Part shown: piece by piece, positions 6,094-35,136 of the stretch | Numbering within the stretch: position 1 is the first letter of the stretch | How the letters are laid out: every line of letters starts with the position of its first letter | NCBI GenBank assembly: GCA_913060435.1 | Contig: CAJXSB010000003.1 | Location: 1 to 38,448, forward strand | Direction of reading: 5' to 3' | Source of the DNA: an uncultured Desulfococcus sp. | GTDB lineage: Bacteria; Desulfobacterota; Desulfobacteria; Desulfobacterales; Desulfococcaceae | Length of the DNA: 38,448 bases | Made by a program: the position numbers and the translations under genes | The notes under the pieces: model-generated | What the model was told of the DNA's origin: nothing | Databases searched by the model: none | Seen by the model: only the letters and a program-made list of their open reading frames with translations

Positions 6094-6377
6094 AATTTCA
6101 TGACAAGGAAGAACTGGAATTGATGAAATCCATTGAGACCGAGGGGTGGGTTTCAGTTGATAACCTGGAAGAAGAGATCAAAAAGGCAAAAGAGGCGGCC
6201 GAAGCAACGTTAAAAAAAAGCGAGAGGATGAACATACGCATATCGCCAAACGATCTGAGACGTCTCAAACTAAAGGCTATGGAAGAAGGAATGCCGTACC
6301 AAACACTGGTGTCAAGCATCATCCATAAATATCTGTCGGGTCGACTTCAAGAACACCACGAACAGAAAAATCTATAG
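6090..6377 (+). CDS. CopG/ribbon-helix-helix family antitoxin
   Basis: KSERMNIRISPNDLRRLKLKAMEEGMPYQTLVSSIIHKYLSGRL pattern of RHH antitoxins; 4-bp overlap with the upstream toxin ORF. Confidence 0.75.
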   Translation: MKFHDKEELELMKSIETEGWVSVDNLEEEIKKAKEAAEATLKKSERMNIRISPNDLRRLKLKAMEEGMPYQTLVSSIIHKYLSGRLQEHHEQKNL

Positions 6378-12767: not shown

Positions 12768-13241
12768 TCAACAGAGGATGGCGGTTTTCAGAAGATAGAG
12801 GGGTATGGTGGCGGAATTTGGGGGACGGAGGTCCGGCGCGAAGGGAGCAGAAGGCCTGTCGACAGGGGCGGGTTCCATGCACTGCCGTACTATACTCATC
12901 GCAGACAGCGGGAAAGACACCCCAAGATATTCATCGGAAACCACCGCTTCGCACGGATCGCTACCGCAGCAGGACGCTCCTGCATCACCATCCGGGGCCG
13001 TCGCTGCCGGATTGGCGCAACAGGAGATCGCCGTCGGCGGACCATGGGCGCTGCAGGCATCTTCTCCCCCGTGGAGGGTCCAGGCAGAGCCACCCGGCGC
13101 CCCATCGCAGCAGCATGGCATTGCCCCCGACACATCGGCGGCCGCCACCCCGCAGATGAGGAGCACCACGATGGTTCGGGCGATATTTTTAGAGATAATA
13201 ATCAAAAGATATCCTTTTCCCAGGATGCATACATGCCACAA
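12768..13241 (-). CDS. Cys-rich secreted hypothetical protein (start may be TTG 13205)
   Basis: Hydrophobic signal TIVVLLICGVAAADVSGA followed by CCC, CC, CC, CGSDPC clusters; collinear upstream of the OB-fold lipoprotein/ABC operon. Overlapping + strand ORFs look non-coding. Confidence 0.5.
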   Translation of the reverse strand: MWHVCILGKGYLLIIISKNIARTIVVLLICGVAAADVSGAMPCCCDGAPGGSAWTLHGGEDACSAHGPPTAISCCANPAATAPDGDAGASCCGSDPCEAVVSDEYLGVSFPLSAMSIVRQCMEPAPVDRPSAPFAPDLRPPNSATIPLYLLKTAILC

Positions 13242-13330
13242 TGTGGTGTTGATGTCAATTTCAAAGTCAGCGGTTCGAGCACCTCAAACCAATAGTAATC
13301 CCCCATCATTAGGACCGCGGTAAACCCGTA

Positions 13331-13358
13331 TTGAAAAGGTGCGGATCCGCGGCAATAT
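13331..13358 (+). promoter_or_regulatory. Candidate promoter TTGAAA-N16-CAATAT with GCGGATCCGC palindrome in the spacer
   Basis: TTGAAA 13331-13336, palindrome 13341-13350, CAATAT 13353-13358, upstream of the small ORF at 13409. Confidence 0.4.
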
Positions 13359-13408
13359 TCATCTGTAAAATGCAAATGAAAGATCCAAAGCAATGAAAGA
13401 GGTGCATC

Positions 13409-13552
13409 ATGGCAGAGAATAAAATTCAGGATTATATCGAGACCGATGAGGAAAGAGAAAAAGGTCATCAGGACACCCGCAGCTACAACCACGAATGCGA
13501 GAACAAGGATCCCCACCTGGGCTGCAATATGGGGATCGATGTTGCAGGATAA
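13409..13552 (+). CDS. Small hydrophilic protein, 47 aa (below the ORF-track cutoff)
   Basis: MAENKIQDYIETDEEREKGHQDTRSYNHECENKDPHLGCNMGIDVAG*; AAAGAGGTG Shine-Dalgarno-like upstream; followed by a strong rho-independent terminator. Confidence 0.55.
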   Translation: MAENKIQDYIETDEEREKGHQDTRSYNHECENKDPHLGCNMGIDVAG

Positions 13553-13627
13553 TGGAAGCTATGGCAGCGTGCATACCGACGCTGTTCAGATCCCAAAAAC
13601 AGTGATAGTCCACGCATGCTGCCTCAA

Positions 13628-13658
13628 GGCAGGGCCCAACAGCCCTGCCGTTTTTTTT
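13628..13658 (+). terminator. Rho-independent terminator
   Basis: GGCAGGGC-CCAACA-GCCCTGCC perfect 8-bp stem followed by G and eight T. Confidence 0.88.
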
Positions 13659-13828
13659 GGGATGCGCAGTCACAGTCGAGGCATGGGATCGGGATAGGCT
13701 CGGGGAGTATTTACCTTCAGCATTGCGCAAAGGGCACCATCCGTTTTTCACCGGTAACGATGATACGGCAAGCGCTGTCTCCGCTGCGGTGATCGATGGA
13801 CAGCCGTGAATAGTCCGCTTGGGAGAGG

Positions 13829-24865: not shown

Positions 24866-24922
24866 GGGCCCACGATTCGAGAATGCACAGAAACCGAACG
24901 CCCCAGCCCCCTCTACGAAACC

Positions 24923-26353
24923 GTGGCCCGGAGGATCGCCGACATGGTCGCCAAGGGCACCTACACGCCGGGCGAGCGGGTGCCGTCGATCCGGCAGTTG
25001 AGCCGTCAGCTCCGGGTCAGCGTCAACACCGTCAAGGCCGCATACGTGCACCTGGAGGACCGGCGGATCATCGAGGCCCGGCCCCAGTCGGGGTACTACG
25101 TCTGCCCGAGCCTGCCCGAACCGCCGCGGGAGCCGGACATCGGCGCATCCGGGACCGCGGCCTTCAACCCCGCCGAGGTCGATGCCGGCGGCCTCGTCAT
25201 GCGCATCATGGCGGATGTCATGGACCCCGGCCGGGTCCAGTTCGGGGCCGCGGTGCCGGATCCCGCACTGATCCCTGCGGAGAAGCTGAACCGGATGCTC
25301 GCCGCCGAAAGCCGCCGCTTCCGGGAGGAAAGCACCGGCTATGCCATGCCGCCGGGAAGCCTGCGGCTGAGGACCCAGATCACCCGCCGGATGGTCCGGT
25401 CGGGCTGCACCCTGCGGCCCGACGACATCATCATCACCACGGGCGCGACCGAGGCCGTGTTCCTGGCCCTCCGGGCCGTCTGCTCCCCCGGCGACACCCT
25501 GGCCGTGGGATCCCCCATCCACTTCAATTTCCTGCAGCTCTTCCAGAGCCTCGGGCTCCGGGTCCTGGAGATTCCGTCGTCCCCCACGGACGGCATCAGC
25601 ATCGAGGTTTTGGAAAAGGCGCTGCGGGAAGTCCCGATCCGGGCGTGTCTCGTGATCTCCAACTTCAACAACCCCCTGGGCATCTGTATGCCCGACGAGC
25701 GGAAGCGCCGGCTCCTCGCCCTTTTGGCGCGCTTCGACGTGCCCCTCATCGAGGACGACATCAACGGCGACCTCCCCTTTTCCGGCAGGCGCCCGTTGAC
25801 GGTCAAGTCCTGGGACACCGCCGGCCGGGTGATGCTCTGCGCCTCGTTTTCCAAAACCCTGGCCCCGGGGTACCGGGTGGGGTGGATCGCGCCCGGGCGG
25901 CACTTCGAGGCGGTCATCCGCCAGAAGCTCGTGACCAGCATCGCCAGCGCGACCCCGACCCAGCTTGCTGTGGCCGAGTTCCTGACCAGCGGGGGATACG
26001 CCCGCCACCTGCGGGCCATCCGGAAGGCCTACCGCGCGAAAACCGCCCAGATGGCCGACGCCGTGGGCCGCGCTTTCCCCCCGGGCACCCGGGTCACCCG
26101 ACCCACTGGCGGTTTCACCCTCTGGTTGGAGATGCCCCGGACGGTCGACAGCCTGGCGCTCTACGGACTCGCCCGGGAGCAGGGCATCACCATCGCGCCG
26201 GGGCGGATCTTCTCCACCACCGACCGGTTCGGCCACTGCATCCGCCTCAATGCGGCCCTCTTTTCCGAAAAGACCCGGTGGGCTGTCGAGGCCGTCGGGC
26301 GCATGGCGCATCAACTCGCCGGCGACGGGCCGGCCCAGGATTCAACCGACTGA
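24923..26353 (+). CDS. MocR-type PLP-dependent transcriptional regulator (GntR wHTH + aminotransferase-like domain)
   Basis: ADMVAKGTYTPGERVPSIRQLSRQLRVSVNTVKAAYVHLEDRRIIEARPQSGYYV wHTH; FNNPLGICMPDERK, SFSKTLAPGYRVGWIAPG (PLP lysine). Homologous frame extends upstream to about 24872 (PLYETVARRIADM) without a canonical start. Confidence 0.93.
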   Translation: MARRIADMVAKGTYTPGERVPSIRQLSRQLRVSVNTVKAAYVHLEDRRIIEARPQSGYYVCPSLPEPPREPDIGASGTAAFNPAEVDAGGLVMRIMADVMDPGRVQFGAAVPDPALIPAEKLNRMLAAESRRFREESTGYAMPPGSLRLRTQITRRMVRSGCTLRPDDIIITTGATEAVFLALRAVCSPGDTLAVGSPIHFNFLQLFQSLGLRVLEIPSSPTDGISIEVLEKALREVPIRACLVISNFNNPLGICMPDERKRRLLALLARFDVPLIEDDINGDLPFSGRRPLTVKSWDTAGRVMLCASFSKTLAPGYRVGWIAPGRHFEAVIRQKLVTSIASATPTQLAVAEFLTSGGYARHLRAIRKAYRAKTAQMADAVGRAFPPGTRVTRPTGGFTLWLEMPRTVDSLALYGLAREQGITIAPGRIFSTTDRFGHCIRLNAALFSEKTRWAVEAVGRMAHQLAGDGPAQDSTD

Positions 26354-26464: not shown

Positions 26465-27490
26465 ATGGGAAATGCAATCTTCTACACCTTGACGGTGCTG
26501 ATATGGGGGTCGACGTGGCTGGCCATCAAGTTCCAGCTGGGCGACGTCGACCCCATGGTCTCCGTGGTCTGGCGGTTCACCCTGGCGGCGGCCATCCTCA
26601 TGGCATGGTGCCGGGCGCGGCGGCTCAACATGCGCTTCAGCGGGAGGGACCACCTGTTCATGGCACTCCAGGGCGCCACGCTTTTCGGGGTCAACTACTG
26701 GCTCTTCTACGCGGCGGAGCAGCACCTCACCAGCGGCCTGGCCGCCGTGATCTTCTCGACCATCCTGGTCATGAACATGGTCAACGGCACCCTGTTCCTG
26801 GGCGCGCCCTTCGACATGAAGGTCGCCGCGGGCGCCTTGCTGGGGCTCTCGGGCATCGCCCTCGTCTTCCGGCCGGAACTGACGGGGTTCCACCTGGGCG
26901 ACGACAGCCTCGTGGGGATGCTCCTCTGCTTCGCCGCCACCTTCCTGGCCTCCCTGGGCAACATCATCTCGGCCCGGAACCAGCAGCGCGGCCTGCCCGT
27001 GATCCAGACCAACGCCTGGGGCATGGCCTACGGCGCGGTCCTGATGCTGGCCGCGGCGCTCCTGAGCGGAAGGCAATTCGCATTCGTGGGGAGCCCCGCC
27101 TACATCATCGCCCTGGTCTACCTTGCGGTCTTCGGCTCCATCGTGGCCTTTGGCTGCTACCTCACCCTGGTGGGCCGCATCGGCGCCGACCGGGCCGCCT
27201 ACGCCACCCTTCTCTTCCCCATCGTGGCCCTGGGGATCTCGACGGTCTGGGAGGGCTACCAATGGACGCCCGAGGCCGCTATCGGCGTGAGCCTGATTCT
27301 GGGGGGCAAACTTCTCATGCTGAAGAAAACGTGCTTCCGGCACCGCACCGTCGATGCCGGCAGGGGCACGAAACCTCGGACGGGCCCAGGCTTGAGGGCA
27401 GCCCGCCCGGCGGCCCTCGCCGGGCATACGGAGACCGGGTGCGTGTGCCGGGCGCCATTGCCGTACAGTTTCAGTGGAGGGATGGATTGA
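26465..27490 (+). CDS. EamA/DMT-family transporter
   Basis: 10-TM DMT pattern: NAIFYTLTVLIWGSTWLAIKFQLGDVDPMVSVVWRFTLAAAIL...; directly downstream of MocR. Confidence 0.92.
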   Translation: MGNAIFYTLTVLIWGSTWLAIKFQLGDVDPMVSVVWRFTLAAAILMAWCRARRLNMRFSGRDHLFMALQGATLFGVNYWLFYAAEQHLTSGLAAVIFSTILVMNMVNGTLFLGAPFDMKVAAGALLGLSGIALVFRPELTGFHLGDDSLVGMLLCFAATFLASLGNIISARNQQRGLPVIQTNAWGMAYGAVLMLAAALLSGRQFAFVGSPAYIIALVYLAVFGSIVAFGCYLTLVGRIGADRAAYATLLFPIVALGISTVWEGYQWTPEAAIGVSLILGGKLLMLKKTCFRHRTVDAGRGTKPRTGPGLRAARPAALAGHTETGCVCRAPLPYSFSGGMD

Positions 27491-27513
27491 CACGGCATTT
27501 TCGGGAAGACGGG
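27394..27513. repeat. Direct repeat copy A
   Basis: Collinear without visible gaps with 33260-33379; includes ...cgccgggcatacggagaccgg[g/a]tgcgtgtgccgggcgccattgccgta[c/a]agtttcagtg...gatggattga. Confidence 0.85.
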
Positions 27514-27528
27514 CTCAGCACCAACATA

Positions 27529-27581: not shown

Positions 27582-29849
27582 TCACGCCAGTACAGAATGT
27601 TTTATGACAACATTTTTTACCTGCTCCCAGGCCATCTCCAACCAGCTCATAACTTGCTGGAATTCCTTCACTGCGAATAGTCGGGGTTGTGTGGTAGCAG
27701 CTTGCTTAAGGTCATCCATGGCTATATAGAGCAATCCTCGACGCTTGAAAACGTGTTTTCGATCTACCATTTCCAGCGTCCGCTGATAATTATGTAGCGA
27801 TAGGCTATAGTCTTCACCACACATCTGCACCAGAGCAAGGTCAAACCAAGTAGAAAGCATTTTCCGGTTGAGCGCCAGGGCTTCTTCAAAAATTCGCCCA
27901 GCATCTTTATACTGCCCCAGATTATACCTGCACCAACCTATCAGTGACTTATCGTCGGCACTTACCAGTTTGCGTTTTTTCGCTTGCTCGATAACATAAC
28001 GGTATTTGTCTATGCCTGCCTTCGTTTCACCAAGCAAAACCAGCGCATTAGCAAGCCCTTTATGCGCCCAGAGGTCATTCTCCTGCAACGAAATAGCCGT
28101 TTCATATGCCTGCCGGGCTTCCGCCAATCGTCTGAGATTCTCCAAAGCCCATCCCATTGACAAAAAACTGTCGTGATTCGATGAGTCCAAGGACACTGCT
28201 CGCCCGAACAAATGCGCAGCGTCCTCATAATAAGCGAATTCCGACAGGACATTACCTTTAAAGTTCAGCCCCCATACGTTATTTGGTTCCAGGGCCAACG
28301 CTCTATCCAAGGCCATCAGCAAGCCCTCATAATCCTCTTTGAAGTACAGGCTCAATGCCCGCCCAGTAAGGGCAATCATTTCCTGTTCTCTATCTGTTTG
28401 ACTACAAGCTAATTCCGCTGCCTTATAATAATCCTTCTGGGCCTGCGTATATTTTTCCTGATTGAAATACATCTGGGCCCGAGCGTTATAAGCTTCTGGA
28501 ATGTCAGGCTCTAGTTCAATCACTTTGCTAAATTCGATAATGGCTTCTGGGTATGCTTCTTGCTCCAAATAGACCAGCCCACGTCCCCAATACCCGTCTA
28601 CTGCGCTGGGGTCTATCTCCACGACCTTATCATAATCCAATAGCGCTTGCCCATAGCGTTGCAATGTCAAGTAGATCCCGGCACGTGCATAATATGCCAT
28701 AGAATTGCTATGCACCAGCGAGACGAACTTGTCATAGCAGCCCAGCGCTTTATCATATTTCTCAGATAATTCGTACACAAAGCCCATACTGTTCCACGCT
28801 TCAGCGTTTTCCGGATCGTGGTCAAGCGCCTGGCGATACTTCTCCAGGGCCTCATCGTACCGTTGCTGTTGGGCATGGACGTTGCCCTGCTTCCAATAGC
28901 CAAAGCTCGGTTCAGGCATCCGCTCGATGGCCTGAGCATAAGCCTCCAACGCCTCGTCGTACTGCTGAAGCGCAAGATAGACATCACCGCTGTTGAGGTA
29001 GCCGACGGAGTTGTCAGGTGCAAGTTCGATGACGCGCCGGTATTGGGCAAGCGCCTGCTCGTATTCTCCCTGGGTTTCATACACCAAACCCATACTGTTG
29101 TAAGCGTCGACGTTCTGGGGATCGTGGTCGAGCGCCTGGCGATACTTCTCCAAGGCCTCATCGTACCGTTGCTGTTGAACATAGACGTTGCCCTGCCTCC
29201 AATAGCCGAAGCTCGGTTCAGGCATCCGCTCGATGGCCTGAGCATAAGCCTCTAACGCCTCTTCATACTGCTGAAGTGCAAGATAAACATCACCGCTGTT
29301 GAGGTAACCCAGCGAGTCGTCAGGTGCAAGTTCGATGACGCGCCGGTATTGGGCAAGCGCCTGCTCGTATTCTCCCTGGGTTTCATACACCAAACCCATA
29401 CTGTTGTAAGCGTCGACGTTCTGGGGATCGTGGTCGAGCGCCTGGCGATACTTCTCCAAGGCCTCATCGTACCGTTGCTGTTGAACATAGACGTTGCCCT
29501 GCCTCCAATAGCCGAAGCTCGGTTCAGGCATCCGCTCGATGGCCTGAGCATAAGCCTCTAACGCCTCTTCATACTGCTGAAGTGCAAGATAAACATCACC
29601 GCTGTTGAGGTAACCCAGCGAGTCGTCAGGTGCAAGTTCGATGACGCGCCGGTAATGGGCAAGCGCCTGCTCGTATTCTCCCTGGGCTTCGTAGACTTGC
29701 CCCATCCCGAAAAAACCTTGAAGATTGTCCGGATCATAACGTAACAGCTCGGTAAAAGCGACTTTCGCCTGGTCATAGTCTCCCGCTTCAAGGGCAAGTG
29801 TACCTGTGTTCAGTAACTCTGTTTGTTCACTCTTATTCCACTCTGACAT
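27582..29849 (-). CDS. Tetratricopeptide repeat (TPR) protein, third gene of the CHAT operon (alternative start 29867)
   Basis: 34-residue TPR periodicity throughout (YNSMGLVYETQGEYEQALAQYRRVIELAPDDS...). GGGGAG Shine-Dalgarno before MSEWNKSEQ; the alternative upstream ATG overlaps the CHAT stop (ATGA). Confidence 0.92.
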   Translation of the reverse strand: MSEWNKSEQTELLNTGTLALEAGDYDQAKVAFTELLRYDPDNLQGFFGMGQVYEAQGEYEQALAHYRRVIELAPDDSLGYLNSGDVYLALQQYEEALEAYAQAIERMPEPSFGYWRQGNVYVQQQRYDEALEKYRQALDHDPQNVDAYNSMGLVYETQGEYEQALAQYRRVIELAPDDSLGYLNSGDVYLALQQYEEALEAYAQAIERMPEPSFGYWRQGNVYVQQQRYDEALEKYRQALDHDPQNVDAYNSMGLVYETQGEYEQALAQYRRVIELAPDNSVGYLNSGDVYLALQQYDEALEAYAQAIERMPEPSFGYWKQGNVHAQQQRYDEALEKYRQALDHDPENAEAWNSMGFVYELSEKYDKALGCYDKFVSLVHSNSMAYYARAGIYLTLQRYGQALLDYDKVVEIDPSAVDGYWGRGLVYLEQEAYPEAIIEFSKVIELEPDIPEAYNARAQMYFNQEKYTQAQKDYYKAAELACSQTDREQEMIALTGRALSLYFKEDYEGLLMALDRALALEPNNVWGLNFKGNVLSEFAYYEDAAHLFGRAVSLDSSNHDSFLSMGWALENLRRLAEARQAYETAISLQENDLWAHKGLANALVLLGETKAGIDKYRYVIEQAKKRKLVSADDKSLIGWCRYNLGQYKDAGRIFEEALALNRKMLSTWFDLALVQMCGEDYSLSLHNYQRTLEMVDRKHVFKRRGLLYIAMDDLKQAATTQPRLFAVKEFQQVMSWLEMAWEQVKNVVIKHSVLA
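28737..29654. repeat. Three tandem 306-bp units (three TPRs each) inside the TPR gene
   Basis: gacgcgccggta...gggcaagcgcctgctcgtattctccctgg recurs at 29031, 29337 and 29643 (306-bp period). The two units 29043-29348 and 29349-29654 look essentially identical; the third has diverged. Confidence 0.9.
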
Positions 29850-29863
29850 CTTCACACTCCCCT

Positions 29864-31513
29864 TCACTCATCTATGCGGGATGAATCATAAATACGACTA
29901 GTTGATATCCTTGTTGGCTGCGGTTTCCACTGAACCGAACCACTCACCGGCCGTCGTTCCTGTCCACCTCGAATGGGTTGAGCAGAACCTATTGACGGTT
30001 GTTGAACCCTGTCCGGCTTTCCCAATTGATGGGAAGCATGTTCCAGCATCCGCTTCGCTACATCCGCATCCATATTCAGGCATGTCAGAGCATTATCCAC
30101 TATTCTTGCTTCAATTGGCCTTTCATCTTGAAGCATATTGCGTGCTCCTTCCATACAGATTCTTGCTTGATCCTCATCCACTGGATAATCCTCATCCTTC
30201 AGCCAACTCAGAGCAATCTCAATCAGGTGTAAAGCTTGCTGGACCAGTGGTGTGGCGGTACCGCGCGGCCTTAGCGAAGTCCTATCTCCGGGTTGTCTGG
30301 GCAACGCAGGCGCTGATGGCTCCTGAAGCAGGATTATTCCAGTCGGGTCATACGTGAACAGCACAGGCGTACCAAAGGAAGGTTCGCTCCCGCGAACTTT
30401 GTTCCAAATTGTCCAACGACCTTCCTGCACAGCCTCATCTACATCCTTGCCGTCTCGCAGCGCCTTGTAAAATCCAGTAGCAAAACTGGTAGCGTGCGCA
30501 TTCATAATTGATGATTGCATAGCGACTACTGCGGGGATGCCTCGCTGAATAAGATGATCTGCCAAGCTGATGAAGCCCGGCGCCGGGTCCTTCATAGCGC
30601 CTTCACAGGCCTGCAGCAGGATAAGACGTGGAAACCAATCAGTAAAAAGGCGTGAAATGAGTTCGGCAGAACACCACTCTACTCTGCCTGTGTCATCAAC
30701 TAGTGCTAAACCTTTGTCGGACTCACCATGCCCAATGAAATGCAGCACGTGGGGTTGCTCGTCTTTGGTAGCCAACTTATCGATCAACTCTGTGATGTTC
30801 CCATACGTTGCTGGCCGATCAATATGGTCAATTCCGGGTATGTTCTTCTCGTAGCATTCGATCTGGCCCAGCACCCTGATCTTTATTCTGATAACTTCTT
30901 CACTACCTGGGTCACTGAGTTCTGTCTCTGCCAATTCACCTATTTCTTCGAGAATTTTGGTTGTGATTACACCCCCCAGGTCTTCATTTTCTGGTTTGCT
31001 GATAATAACCAACACGCGCAGCGGTGGTGTCTGAGGGTTGAGGTCATAAACGACACTTGTGTCAAATTTGGTTCGCCGAGAAAGCGCAATCATGGGTTTT
31101 TCTGTTGCCAGCCAAAATCTCATGGGCTTACAGTACAGGAACTCCAGTGGCCAAGAGAAAACTTCAGATGTGGAATCCACGTCGATAACGACCCGTAAAC
31201 AGCGATTCTTGTTTCCACGTCGTCGGTCGTTTATTACGGTTTGAAGGGCTTGCTCGAACAGGATTCCAACCTTACCCGGGAAGATCGTCCGGTAGAGATC
31301 CCGTCCCAGAGTCTGAATCTCTTCCATCTTTCCATCCAACTCACCTGCTTTGAGCTTACTAATATTTTTTCTGATGTCATCCAGCAGATCTTCTTCCTTG
31401 ACCACTTTTGCGGCTGCAAAACGTTTAAGATTATCTTGTGTGACCAGCGTAGCTCTAATATTGTCACCGGGCAGGATCTCAAGTTCAAACTGATCGTATT
31501 CTTTTGTGTCCAT
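29864..31513 (-). CDS. CHAT-domain (caspase-like, clan CD) putative protease
   Basis: Predicted catalytic His in HVLHFIGHGESDKGLAL and Cys in FPRLILLQACEGAMKD; SLADHLIQRGIPAVVAMQSSI...FATGFYKALRDGKDVDEAVQEGR typical of CHAT. GGGGAG Shine-Dalgarno before ATG 31513 (GTG 31519 alternative). Confidence 0.88.
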   Translation of the reverse strand: MDTKEYDQFELEILPGDNIRATLVTQDNLKRFAAAKVVKEEDLLDDIRKNISKLKAGELDGKMEEIQTLGRDLYRTIFPGKVGILFEQALQTVINDRRRGNKNRCLRVVIDVDSTSEVFSWPLEFLYCKPMRFWLATEKPMIALSRRTKFDTSVVYDLNPQTPPLRVLVIISKPENEDLGGVITTKILEEIGELAETELSDPGSEEVIRIKIRVLGQIECYEKNIPGIDHIDRPATYGNITELIDKLATKDEQPHVLHFIGHGESDKGLALVDDTGRVEWCSAELISRLFTDWFPRLILLQACEGAMKDPAPGFISLADHLIQRGIPAVVAMQSSIMNAHATSFATGFYKALRDGKDVDEAVQEGRWTIWNKVRGSEPSFGTPVLFTYDPTGIILLQEPSAPALPRQPGDRTSLRPRGTATPLVQQALHLIEIALSWLKDEDYPVDEDQARICMEGARNMLQDERPIEARIVDNALTCLNMDADVAKRMLEHASHQLGKPDRVQQPSIGSAQPIRGGQERRPVSGSVQWKPQPTRISTSRIYDSSRIDE

Positions 31514-31531
31514 AGTCACTCTCCCCGAGCT

Positions 31532-32449
31532 TCAGAAGCCCGCTACAATATCATTCCACAGCTTTTTGTCTGTGCCAGGTGCACCGCTTTTTAAAAAATT
31601 CTTGGCAGGCTTCGAAAGAAAGTCCAGCACGTCACGTAGCTCGGAAGTAAAGAAGTGGAAGTTGCGAAATACGGCCAGGGCGCCGATAGCATCTATCCGA
31701 GAGACATGCTTGGGAACCTGGAGGACTACCCCCAAACGAGGTTCTGTCTGCATAATCTTTTCCTCGCCTTCCAGACGCCACATAACTTTGACATTGCCAC
31801 GTCCTCGGCTGAGAATCTTCGGTCGCCGGACATAATGATTAAACGGCCCCAAGATCAGTCCCGCCTTGCCGGCCATTTTGAGTTCAATCGCCGCCTTTGC
31901 CGGAGGGCTCAGATTTAACAACTGCTCAGTTGGCTGTGCTGAGTCTGCTTTAAATTCAAAATTTTCGTCCAATCCGACAGTCAAATCTTGCCAAGCGTTG
32001 ATTATGTCCTGCCATTCTTCGTGCGGAAAGATCTGATAGGCTACGGGACGCTCGGTGGAGGAGTGGTCTGGATTGAATTCAACTCTACATTCCAATCGCT
32101 CAAATCCCCATCCGGGTTTGGGAAACAAAGTGATTGGAAAATCAACTAAATAGAAATGGAAGCGTTTGAGCAGATTGGCAATATAGGGTGGTATCTTCAG
32201 GTGGAGGTCAGCGAACAGCTTTTTCCTCAACGGTACGATAGCCAGTTTTGGTGAGAATTCCGCCACCTCTCTGCCAAGTTCAGCCACCAATTCTATAAGG
32301 CGATTGCTATCGTTTTTAGTCTTCGCTTCCGAACCCAAAGGGGTTTTGTAAGCGTAAGCAACATCTGCTAATTCCTGCAAGAAGATCTGCCGATCATTGG
32401 GCTGGAAATCGACGCCCAATTCTGCATATAGACTATCGACACTCATCAT
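31532..32449 (-). CDS. Uncharacterised 305-aa protein, first gene of the CHAT-TPR operon
   Basis: Long ORF with AAGGAAG Shine-Dalgarno upstream of ATGATG; separated from the CHAT gene by a few nt; no domain recognised. Confidence 0.8.
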   Translation of the reverse strand: MMSVDSLYAELGVDFQPNDRQIFLQELADVAYAYKTPLGSEAKTKNDSNRLIELVAELGREVAEFSPKLAIVPLRKKLFADLHLKIPPYIANLLKRFHFYLVDFPITLFPKPGWGFERLECRVEFNPDHSSTERPVAYQIFPHEEWQDIINAWQDLTVGLDENFEFKADSAQPTEQLLNLSPPAKAAIELKMAGKAGLILGPFNHYVRRPKILSRGRGNVKVMWRLEGEEKIMQTEPRLGVVLQVPKHVSRIDAIGALAVFRNFHFFTSELRDVLDFLSKPAKNFLKSGAPGTDKKLWNDIVAGF

Positions 32450-32889: not shown

Positions 32890-33382
32890 ATATAAAAACA
32901 TATGTACCCTTTGTTTATCTGCCCATCTATACCTTGTGATTTTTGCTGGACGCCCTAAAATTGGGCCATGATTCGAGAACGCACACAGACCGAACGAGCA
33001 GCCCCCTCTACGAAGCTGTGGCCCGGAGAATCGCCGACATGGTCGTCCAGGGCACCTAAACGCCGGGCGAGCGGGTGCCGTCGCCGGGATTTGAGCCGTC
33101 AGCTCCGGTTCAGCGTCAACACTGTCAAGGCTGTCTACGGGCACCTGGAGGACCGACGGATCATCGAGGCCCGGCCCCAGTCGGGGTACGAAGGAAAAGC
33201 GGGCCGACACCACGCCGTCCCCGCCGGCGGGCGCACGAGCCCTCGGGCGGCTCCGGTGTGAGGGCGGCCCGCCCTGCGGCCTTCGCCGGGCATACGGAGA
33301 CCGGATGCGTGTGCCGGGCGCCATTGCCGTAAAGTTTCAGTGCGGGGATGGATTGAGGCAGGCGTATCGGACAGGCGGGTTC
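32890..33382 (+). pseudogene. Degenerate, internally deleted copy of the MocR-EamA cassette
   Basis: Promoter and 5' coding region resemble 24790-25097 (ATTCGAGAACGCAC...CTCTACGAAGCTGTGGCCCGGAGAATCGCCGACATGGTC...GAGGCCCGGCCCCAGTCGGGGTAC), then jumps to sequence matching the EamA 3' end (27340-27513). A 1-nt length difference frameshifts it. Confidence 0.8.
33260..33379. repeat. Direct repeat copy B
   Basis: Gap-free alignment by eye to 27394-27513 (constant offset 5866). Confidence 0.85.
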
Positions 33383-33430
33383 AGAGTCTATAAATTCAGC
33401 GGTTTGGAACGTTTATTTCACCGATGAGAT

Positions 33431-34879
33431 TCAGCGAGCCCTTGTGAAATGATTCGTTGACCCATCTGTATTTATTTGACGCTTCCCTTTAATGAGATTA
33501 TGGCCAACCATGTAGCAATAAAGACTGGTGGGGATAAAATCGAGAAGCACGTTTCCCATGACAGTGCTTCCGTTCGCTGATTTGGTTGTCACGGCTGCAT
33601 TATCAAGGTTATTTGCGTGGCAAAACCGAAGCAGGTTTTTGAGCTCCGCCGGCTTATGATAAAATCGATCTGTCCACTTAACCTCAATAGCCCACATGAC
33701 TTTTTGTTCTTTACCAATATTTACGATATCAACTTCACCATTCTTCCACTTGGAGTAATGAAGCAGAACATCAGAATGAAACCACTGGGAGTACACTGCT
33801 GTTTCCGCTACTTCGCCCATAGCTGGATCGTCACTTGTTATGGGCGAAAACAACGCACTTCGTATGGATGGATTTGTCAAATAGACCTTGAAAAAGTTTG
33901 CCCGCTTAAACCGCTTGGCAGTCCTGTCTACTCTATGCACAGTTCTGATTAGAAATGCCGCTTCTAAATATTCTATGTACTTTTTGATGGTATTTTTAGC
34001 CACGCCTGAACCTTTTGACAATTCTTCAAGCGAGACCTCATTTGAGGTATTGAATGCCAGCGTTGTAAAGAGATAGTTTAACTCTTGTATGTCCTGAACA
34101 CCATATAACCCGGGAAGATCACGCAGCAAGACTTTATCGATAATATCATTTTTTATGAATCTGCCTGGATCCGACTGAATCTCTTCAGAGAATATAACTT
34201 CAGGATAGCCACCAAAGTTCAAGTAGTGAACAAAGCTATCATTCAACGCTTCGATGTCGGGAGTTGTGAAAGAACCCCGGTTTGAATCAGGAGCAACAAC
34301 CATATCATTTTTCCCCAACAAATCTAAATATTCATGAAATGTCAGGGGCGGCAATAAGAAATCGGTAAATCTACCCGCGCCGGACTCGTGACTCTTCAAC
34401 CTCAGCGCCGCAGCCGCAGAGCCGGAAACCGTGCATTTTAGATTCGGAAATCTATCAACCATCGCCTTGAGGTGAATCTCCCAATTTTTCAGGTATTGAA
34501 TCTCATCAAAGAAAATAAAGCATTCATCTTCGATATAGTTGATTCCAGTTGCCTGTGAAAAGATATCCAAGAAGGCTTCAAGGGCAAGCCCGTTGTAGAT
34601 AGGATGATCAACTGAAAAATATACTATTTGTTTGGGGGATATCCCTGTTTCGATCAGATTTTGAATGGCATGATGTATGAGTACCGTTTTGCCGACACGT
34701 CTAGGCCCCATCAGCACAGTGGCCCTGCGTATCTTTCTCGATTCGACAAGCGGATAGAACAACTTCAAATATGCTCTGGGCTTGAACGATCGGAAAATCT
34801 TCGGTATACGACCATCTTTCCACCACGGATTTTCGATATCGAGCCTTTTAACCACCTGTTCTGTAGGAATTTTTTTCAT
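33431..34879 (-). CDS. AAA-family ATPase with DUF4143-type C-terminus
   Basis: Walker A MGPRRVGKTVLIHHA, Walker B ECFIFFDEIQYLKNWE, VSGSAAAALR sensor region, RFTDFLLPPLTFHEYL, C-terminal VMWAIEVKWTDRFYHKPAELKNLLRF. Visibly lower GC than flanks. Confidence 0.9.
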   Translation of the reverse strand: MKKIPTEQVVKRLDIENPWWKDGRIPKIFRSFKPRAYLKLFYPLVESRKIRRATVLMGPRRVGKTVLIHHAIQNLIETGISPKQIVYFSVDHPIYNGLALEAFLDIFSQATGINYIEDECFIFFDEIQYLKNWEIHLKAMVDRFPNLKCTVSGSAAAALRLKSHESGAGRFTDFLLPPLTFHEYLDLLGKNDMVVAPDSNRGSFTTPDIEALNDSFVHYLNFGGYPEVIFSEEIQSDPGRFIKNDIIDKVLLRDLPGLYGVQDIQELNYLFTTLAFNTSNEVSLEELSKGSGVAKNTIKKYIEYLEAAFLIRTVHRVDRTAKRFKRANFFKVYLTNPSIRSALFSPITSDDPAMGEVAETAVYSQWFHSDVLLHYSKWKNGEVDIVNIGKEQKVMWAIEVKWTDRFYHKPAELKNLLRFCHANNLDNAAVTTKSANGSTVMGNVLLDFIPTSLYCYMVGHNLIKGKRQINTDGSTNHFTRAR

Positions 34880-35059: not shown

Positions 35060-35112
35060 AGTCCAGTTTCAGTGGGGGGATGGATTGAGACGGGCGTATC
35101 GGGGAGATGGAT
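35060..35112. repeat. Direct repeat copy C (shorter)
   Basis: ccagtttcagtggggggatggattgagacgggcgtatcgggga resembles cagtttcagtggagggatggattgacacggcattttcggga (A) and aagtttcagtgcggggatggattgaggcaggcgtatcgga (B). Confidence 0.7.
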
Positions 35113-35136
35113 CCAGGGCGAATAAGACCAGTGGGG

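What the first reader, a model, noticed from the sequence alone, without database searches (positions are those of the whole stretch)
27582..32449. Three-gene CHAT protease / TPR / unknown-protein operon: candidate conflict or regulated-proteolysis system
Seen: tight minus-strand operon (a few nt between genes 1 and 2; ATGA overlap available between genes 2 and 3) of a 305-aa unknown protein, a CHAT-type protein with apparent His (HFIGHGES) and Cys (LLQACEGA) residues, and a TPR-only protein. Known: CHAT proteases are clan CD caspase-like peptidases, and TPR partners or fusions occur in bacterial defence (TPR-CHAT/Csx29 with gRAMP; CHAT-like proteases activating bacterial gasdermins). Inference: a stand-alone module in which the TPR protein is sensor or substrate and the 305-aa protein is effector, substrate or inhibitor. 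No gRAMP, CRISPR or recognisable gasdermin is present, so it is not an obvious instance of a described system.
Basis: partly seen in the sequence, partly recalled or inferred. Interest (0 to 1): 0.82.

Follow-up and report, generated by a model that had tools for sequence, protein, structure and literature searches.

The report
CHAT protease paired with unknown partner
A bacterial gene trio pairs a caspase-like protease with an undescribed protein family that travels with such proteases across many different immune-type sensors, in one related bacterium even inside a CRISPR-guided protease operon, so it is probably the effector (or close partner) that the protease switches on.

Summary
The trio is real: on the minus strand, a 305-aa protein, a CHAT protease with an intact His/Cys dyad, and a TPR-only protein. 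The 305-aa protein matches no Pfam, NCBIfam or PADLOC family but is not an orphan. I found 47 further members, mostly cyanobacterial. Of 45 members with readable neighbourhoods, 41 sit next to a CHAT gene; 37 have it directly downstream on the same strand. Distances within the two proteins correlate at r=0.946 over 37 pairs. The pair recurs with at least ten sensor architectures (MoxR/vWA systems with VMAP or iSTAND, NB-ARC-TPR, NACHT-HEAT, GUN4, FGE and others). In a same-order genome a member lies between Csx29 and Cas7-11 of a type III-E CRISPR ('Craspase') operon, its start overlapping the csx29 stop. It is neither Csx30 nor Csx31, and belongs to the window protein's own subfamily (100/100 support). 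Best reading: a portable protease/partner module with TPR as sensor or scaffold, organised like the protease-gated pro-nuclease pairs published in 2025. A modest model (pLDDT 66.7) of a cyanobacterial member resembles beta-pore-forming toxins; this is only suggestive. No function was tested.

The parts
31532..32449 (-). 305-aa protein of an undescribed CHAT-associated family (subfamily with L088-L090 and the Craspase-locus member L111)
   Evidence: ORF; no family match; relatives; tree
29864..31513 (-). CHAT protease gene (alternative GTG start 31519)
   Evidence: Pfam CHAT E 1.8e-19; start chosen from the ribosome-binding-like stretch
30395..31213 (-). CHAT domain, aa 103-375 of the 551-aa reading
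30728..30742 (-). HFIGH motif with candidate catalytic His (His260, His264)
   Evidence: sequence; invariant in alignment
30605..30607 (-). candidate catalytic Cys305 (LLQAC)
   Evidence: sequence; invariant in alignment
29867..30310 (-). C-terminal part of the CHAT protein, no EAD recognised; equivalent position to the EADs of relatives
   Evidence: no Pfam match; no convincing second copy in the own genome
27582..29849 (-). TPR-only protein (alternative GTG start 29867)
   Evidence: 16 TPR stretches, no NTPase domain
28770..29690 (-). three 306-bp TPR blocks, 90-99.7% identical: recent repeat expansion
27383..27518 (.). repeat flanking the operon (copy 1)
33249..33384 (.). repeat flanking the operon (copy 2, 84% identical; a further part-copy at 35065-35134)

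Best explanation
The window holds one version of a portable two-component module: an undescribed ~300-aa, probably non-enzymatic, beta-rich protein plus a dedicated CHAT protease, plugged onto an exchangeable sensor. Proposed mechanism: the TPR protein (sensor or scaffold) detects an infection or stress cue and lets the CHAT protease act; the protease cleaves the 305-aa protein, and the product arrests or kills the cell. Shown here: the pair is a conserved, co-inherited unit; the protease dyad is intact; the pair is combined with many sensor types, including a type III-E CRISPR effector; the protein is fused once in the position the literature assigns to effectors. Inferred: that the 305-aa protein is substrate and effector, that TPR is the sensor, and that the outcome is cell arrest or death.
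For: 41 of 45 testable family members lie next to a CHAT gene, 37 directly upstream of it on the same strand; distance matrices correlate r=0.946, none of 2000 permutations above 0.39. Sensors vary: VMAP or iSTAND with MoxR/vWA, NB-ARC-TPR fused or separate, NACHT-HEAT, GUN4, FGE, nSTAND1-EAD10. Between Csx29 and Cas7-11 in L111. C-terminal fusion to a vWA-NB-ARC-TPR protein in L021, the effector position of PMC7159879. Dyad conserved in nearly all CHAT partners. No conserved catalytic set in the 305-aa family. Published precedent of the same layout: PMC12799240.
Against: No cleavage, toxicity or defence assay exists. Other stable partners of a protease (inhibitor, chaperone, adaptor) would show the same linkage. 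The known Craspase substrate, Csx30, is a different family. Four members lack a neighbouring CHAT gene (L070, L086, L087, L110; L086 has a C14 caspase instead). The window has no NTPase in its third gene, so how a TPR-only protein would gate the protease is unclear.
Confidence: 0.5

Rival explanations
1. The 305-aa protein is a regulatory subunit, inhibitor or adaptor of the CHAT protease (comparable to CanB of the caspase-nuclease system), not its substrate; the true target is elsewhere, possibly the TPR protein or a host protein.
For: Same linkage and co-inheritance data. CanB forms a complex with its caspase CanA (PMC12799240). The protein is non-enzymatic by conservation.
Against: Fusion of the family in the effector position in L021. 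Across systems the constant upstream partner of a defence protease has so far been the substrate where tested (PMC12799240).
Confidence: 0.27
2. The 305-aa family is a beta-pore-forming protein of leukocidin/haemolysin-like fold that permeabilises the cell's own membrane after CHAT cleavage, a counterpart of bacterial gasdermins. This is a narrower form of the best explanation.
For: For a cyanobacterial member (pLDDT 66.7, pTM 0.66) the best 15 PDB matches appear to be all beta-pore-forming toxin entries, best E 9.9e-6. Alternating strand such as NLNLGLDANLDVGI in the unmodelled middle of some members.
Against: TM-scores only 0.2-0.25; other beta-sandwiches follow. The window's own model is unusable and gives no significant match. 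The alternation test is not significant for the window protein and weak for most members. No sequence match to any solved structure.
Confidence: 0.18
3. The trio serves ordinary regulated proteolysis or signalling (for example development or stress response) with no role in defence.
For: Neighbours in the window are mostly ordinary genes (regulator, transporter, cytochrome, methyltransferases). CHAT-type proteases also have housekeeping relatives (weak HetF match).
Against: Patchy distribution: 1 of 297 genomes of the phylum sample, 3 of 291 of the class, 38 of 391 of a cyanobacterial order. Plasmid copies, lower GC than one flank, flanking repeats. Association with published conflict systems and a type III-E CRISPR operon.
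Confidence: 0.12

Closest known systems
Protease-gated nuclease pairs of Hachiman/AVAST and the caspase-nuclease (canu) system (PMC12799240)
   Same: A separate, typically upstream partner gene next to a protease that is joined to unrelated immune sensors; a clan CD protease variant whose loci include TPRs; recurrent acquisition of the pair as a unit.
   Different: Partner there is a metallo-beta-lactamase nuclease with a trypsin-like or caspase protease; here the partner is an unrelated family with no nuclease or other catalytic signature, and the protease is CHAT.
Type III-E Craspase: Cas7-11 with TPR-CHAT Csx29, substrate Csx30, plus Csx31 and a sigma factor (PMC10028731, PMC9729208)
   Same: CHAT protease plus TPR; a family member sits between csx29 and cas7-11 in a same-order genome (L111) and groups with the window protein.
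   Different: In the window CHAT and TPR are separate proteins and there is no gRAMP; the 305-aa family is neither Csx30 nor Csx31.
MoxR-vWA ternary conflict systems with VMAP or iSTAND and EADs (PMC7159879)
   Same: Many relatives of the 305/CHAT pair are the signalling/effector part of such clusters, with matching EADs on CHAT and core protein.
   Different: The window has no MoxR, vWA, VMAP, iSTAND or recognisable EAD. That paper reports an alpha/beta-hydrolase gene beside caspases; here the slot beside CHAT holds the 305-aa family, which lacks such a catalytic set.
Bacterial gasdermin with adjacent caspase-like protease (from general knowledge)
   Same: Small protein next to a caspase-like protease; possible release by cleavage.
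   Different: No sequence match to solved structures; structure hits are haemolysin-type rather than gasdermin; no Cys near the N-terminus of the window protein.

Membership tests
CHAT protease (PF12770) | CHAT domain above the curated cut-off | tested here: met
   70.7 bits against cut-off 24
CHAT protease (PF12770) | His/Cys dyad | tested here: met
   HFIGHG and LLQAC, invariant in ten aligned partners and present in nearly all others
CHAT protease (PF12770) | Proteolytic activity | not testable with these tools
   needs a biochemical assay
Type III-E Craspase | Cas7-11/gRAMP beside the protease | tested here: not met
   No gRAMP among the window genes scanned around the trio; the window's whole genome was not searched for it
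Type III-E Craspase | TPR and CHAT in one chain (Csx29) | tested here: not met
   Separate genes; no Csx29 model match to the window CHAT in NCBIfam
Type III-E Craspase | CRISPR array | tested here: not met
   None in the window by a simple repeat test
Csx30 / Csx31 | Match to NF041234 or NF041235 | tested here: not met
   Models recognise L123 proteins (2.2e-92, 9.9e-117) but not the window protein, L088 or the L111 member; profile comparison negative
MoxR-vWA ternary conflict system | MoxR, vWA and VMAP or iSTAND genes in the locus | tested here: not met
   None among the window neighbours scanned; rest of the genome not tested
Protease-gated nuclease pair / canu | Metallo-beta-lactamase nuclease as partner | tested here: not met
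   No Pfam match; no conserved His or acidic cluster in 48 members
Bacterial gasdermin | Sequence similarity to solved gasdermins | tested here: not met
   Profile search of PDB sequences gave only one unrelated hit at E 0.24
Bacterial gasdermin | Gasdermin fold and cleavable C-terminus | tested here: inconclusive
   No gasdermin among the best Foldseek matches, but the model is of moderate quality
Leukocidin/haemolysin-like beta-pore-forming protein | Beta-sandwich with a membrane-inserting stem | tested here: inconclusive
   Best E 9.9e-6 but TM about 0.25; the candidate stem region is unmodelled

The most novel reading that the evidence does not exclude
The 305-aa family is a new, non-gasdermin class of intracellular pore-forming death effector released by CHAT proteases, shared by STAND/MoxR-type bacterial immune systems and, in some bacteria, by an RNA-guided Craspase that uses it in place of Csx30/Csx31.
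Probability: 0.18. Interest if true: 0.93.

Novelty: new variant of a known kind. Interest (0 to 1): 0.74.

Why it matters
CHAT and caspase-like proteases are common in bacterial immunity, but few of their substrates are known. A protein family that accompanies them across at least ten sensor types is a direct list of candidate substrates or regulators. Its presence between Csx29 and Cas7-11 suggests that some Craspases act through something other than Csx30. Both claims can be tested with one cleavage assay. If the fold hint is right, it would add a second pore-forming branch to protease-triggered bacterial cell death.

Tried and rejected
Single-sequence scan of genome contigs with the 305-aa protein: nothing; the alignment scan worked. 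Viral contigs and phages: nothing. That the family is Csx31 or Csx30 was tested and rejected. The weak MLTR_LBD match (E 0.2) was rejected as chance. The structure job on the window protein was unusable. A second copy of the CHAT C-terminal part in the own genome (an EAD partner): none convincing. 305-like genes beside eight CHAT loci from plasmids: none. The amphipathic-strand test was weak and not significant for the window protein.

Full report
Observation. The window is contig 3 (38,448 bases) of a 4.58-Mb genome in 553 contigs. The three minus-strand genes are present as described. Reading the sequence, the better starts are ATG 31513 for CHAT and ATG 29849 for the TPR protein, each behind a purine-rich ribosome-binding-like stretch, leaving gaps of 18 and 14 nt. 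Pfam gives CHAT at E 1.8e-19 and TPR at E 2e-112; the 305-aa protein has no Pfam, PADLOC or NCBIfam match. The CHAT dyad (HFIGHG; LLQAC) is intact. The operon is about 44-53% GC, against 62-69% on the flank at 24.5-27.5 kb, and lies between repeats.

Finding relatives. tblastn found two plasmid homologues, in Planktothrix and Anabaena. Their neighbours include CHAT genes, and in Anabaena a complete iSTAND/MoxR/vWA/FGE cluster. An alignment scan of species genomes gave seven more in filamentous cyanobacteria. Profile searches gave 6 of 386 genomes sampled from the cyanobacterial phylum and 38 of 391 from one order. In the window's own phylum sample of 297 genomes no other member appeared with profile A3, but a subfamily-specific profile (A8) found two more in its class, both of the same order, and one more in cyanobacteria, L112.

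The pair is the unit. I examined 48 members with neighbourhoods, counting the window and collapsing duplicates. Three end at a contig edge or run into a transposase (L065, L066, L071). Of the other 45, 41 lie next to a CHAT gene: 37 directly upstream of it on the same strand, plus Csx29 in L111, a fused arrangement with a CHAT fragment next to it in L021, and opposite-strand neighbours in L003 and L084. The exceptions are L070, L087, L110, and L086, where the neighbour is a C14 caspase. The distance matrices of the two proteins correlate at r=0.946 over 37 pairs, with no permutation of 2000 above 0.39. Shared host descent contributes to this, so it shows co-inheritance rather than contact. CHATs linked to the family fall on one side of a branch (81/92; 85% of bootstraps) away from seven unlinked CHATs. 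The window CHAT is a long branch, so its exact place is unsure.

The third component changes. Partners seen: VMAP+MoxR+vWA; iSTAND+MoxR+vWA; CHAT fused to VMAP; CHAT-NB-ARC-TPR in one chain; a separate NB-ARC-TPR gene (L061, L064; the layout closest to the window); CHAT-NACHT-HEAT; CHAT-AAA/NACHT; CHAT-GUN4 with HEAT proteins; nSTAND1-EAD10; CHAT-FGE; CHAT-C14; an unassigned ~637-aa protein; Csx29+Cas7-11; and TPR only in the window. In several loci the CHAT C-terminus and the core protein both match the same EAD (EAD6 in L010; EAD9 in L004), though weakly and below Pfam's cut-off. That is the homotypic-coupling pattern of Kaur et al. 2020 (PMC7159879). In L021 the 305-family domain is the C-terminal part of a 1545-aa vWA-NB-ARC-TPR protein, the position that paper assigns to effectors.

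The CRISPR link. In genome G1090, of the same order as the window, contig 476 encodes Csx29 (NF041237, E 7.7e-136; solved TPR-CHAT 7zoq, 1.9e-138), then a family member, then Cas7-11e (NF041225, E 0). The member's ATG at L111:6126 overlaps the csx29 stop ending at 6132, and the gRAMP start follows about 25 nt after its stop. Csx30 and Csx31 were not recognised among the four L111 proteins scanned; the remaining small ORFs of the contig were not scanned. The gRAMP frame is split, with transposase-like ORFs between the two parts, so this copy may be inactive. Csx30 and Csx31 models recognise proteins of another type III-E locus in the same order (L123: 2.2e-92 and 9.9e-117) but none of the family members scanned, and profile comparison is negative. 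In the family tree the window protein, the L111 protein and three cyanobacterial members (L088-L090) form one group with 100/100 support. Identity of the window protein is 31-36% to L088-L090 and 25% to L111.

What the protein might be. Among 48 members the only polar or aromatic positions at 100% are Tyr100, Cys121 and Trp224; no His or acidic cluster is conserved. An enzyme is therefore unlikely. The window protein could not be modelled (pLDDT 42.8). A cyanobacterial member reached pLDDT 66.7 and pTM 0.66, with a confident core and an unmodelled middle. Its fifteen best PDB matches appear to be all beta-pore-forming toxin entries (best E 9.9e-6), but TM-scores are 0.2-0.25 and other beta-sandwiches follow; a viral library gave nothing significant. 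I treat a beta-sandwich as likely and a pore as a hint.

Mechanism. The organisation matches closely the protease/pro-nuclease pairs shown experimentally in 2025 (PMC12799240): a separate, typically upstream partner gene, a protease joined to unrelated sensors, and a caspase variant whose loci include TPRs. I therefore favour a protease-gated effector (0.5) over a regulatory subunit (0.27). The TPR protein, with recently expanded 306-bp blocks up to 99.7% identical, is the natural sensor or scaffold. No step of this mechanism was tested.

Novelty. I found no description of the 305-aa family in the libraries or papers read. CHAT proteases, TPR partners and modular conflict systems are known; the partner family, its breadth and its presence in a type III-E operon are what is new. 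Hence 'new variant of a known kind'.

Noticed in passing
window 24904-25096 and 32999-33189; 27383-27518 and 33249-33384; 35065-35134: Parts of the MocR-type regulator start and EamA transporter end recur, decayed, on the other side of the trio, with a third part-copy beyond the AAA_14/DUF4143 gene; the repeat is found nowhere else in the genome, so the trio and its neighbour may have been inserted between duplicated stretches.
   Followed up: partly
window 33431-34879 (-): AAA_14/DUF4143 ATPase matching PADLOC candidate defence family PDC-S01 (E 4.8e-56), next to the trio; such ATPases are widespread, so this is a weak defence-island hint.
   Followed up: no
L111:7008-14054: Cas7-11 gene of a type III-E locus split into two parts with two transposase-like ORFs between them.
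   Followed up: no
L124:2910-3926; L125; L127:9505-14470: Further type III-E loci in the same order whose accessory genes differ: an unknown 339-aa protein just upstream of csx29 (L124), a weakly Csx30-like protein (L125), a PtuA-like ATPase and unknowns (L127).
   Followed up: partly
L110:5579-6490 and 12859-13818: Same-order genome with a cyanobacterial-type (subfamily A) member lacking a CHAT neighbour, in an area with GAF and EAD11 proteins; suggests transfer between phyla.
   Followed up: partly
L078, L080, L082, L083 and L086: Caspase variety: L078 has CHAT fused to a C14 caspase domain (similar-length CHAT partners in L080, L082, L083), and in L086 a C14 caspase gene takes the place of CHAT beside the family member.
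   Followed up: partly
L006:10293-12206, L007:10509-12428, L069:6579-8483: An unassigned ~637-aa protein with no clear Pfam domain is the constant third gene in three 305/CHAT loci.
   Followed up: no
G000 contigs C168, C107 (two), C80 (L025-L027, L029): Four further CHAT matches in the window's own genome, three in long open frames, distant from the trio's CHAT.
   Followed up: no
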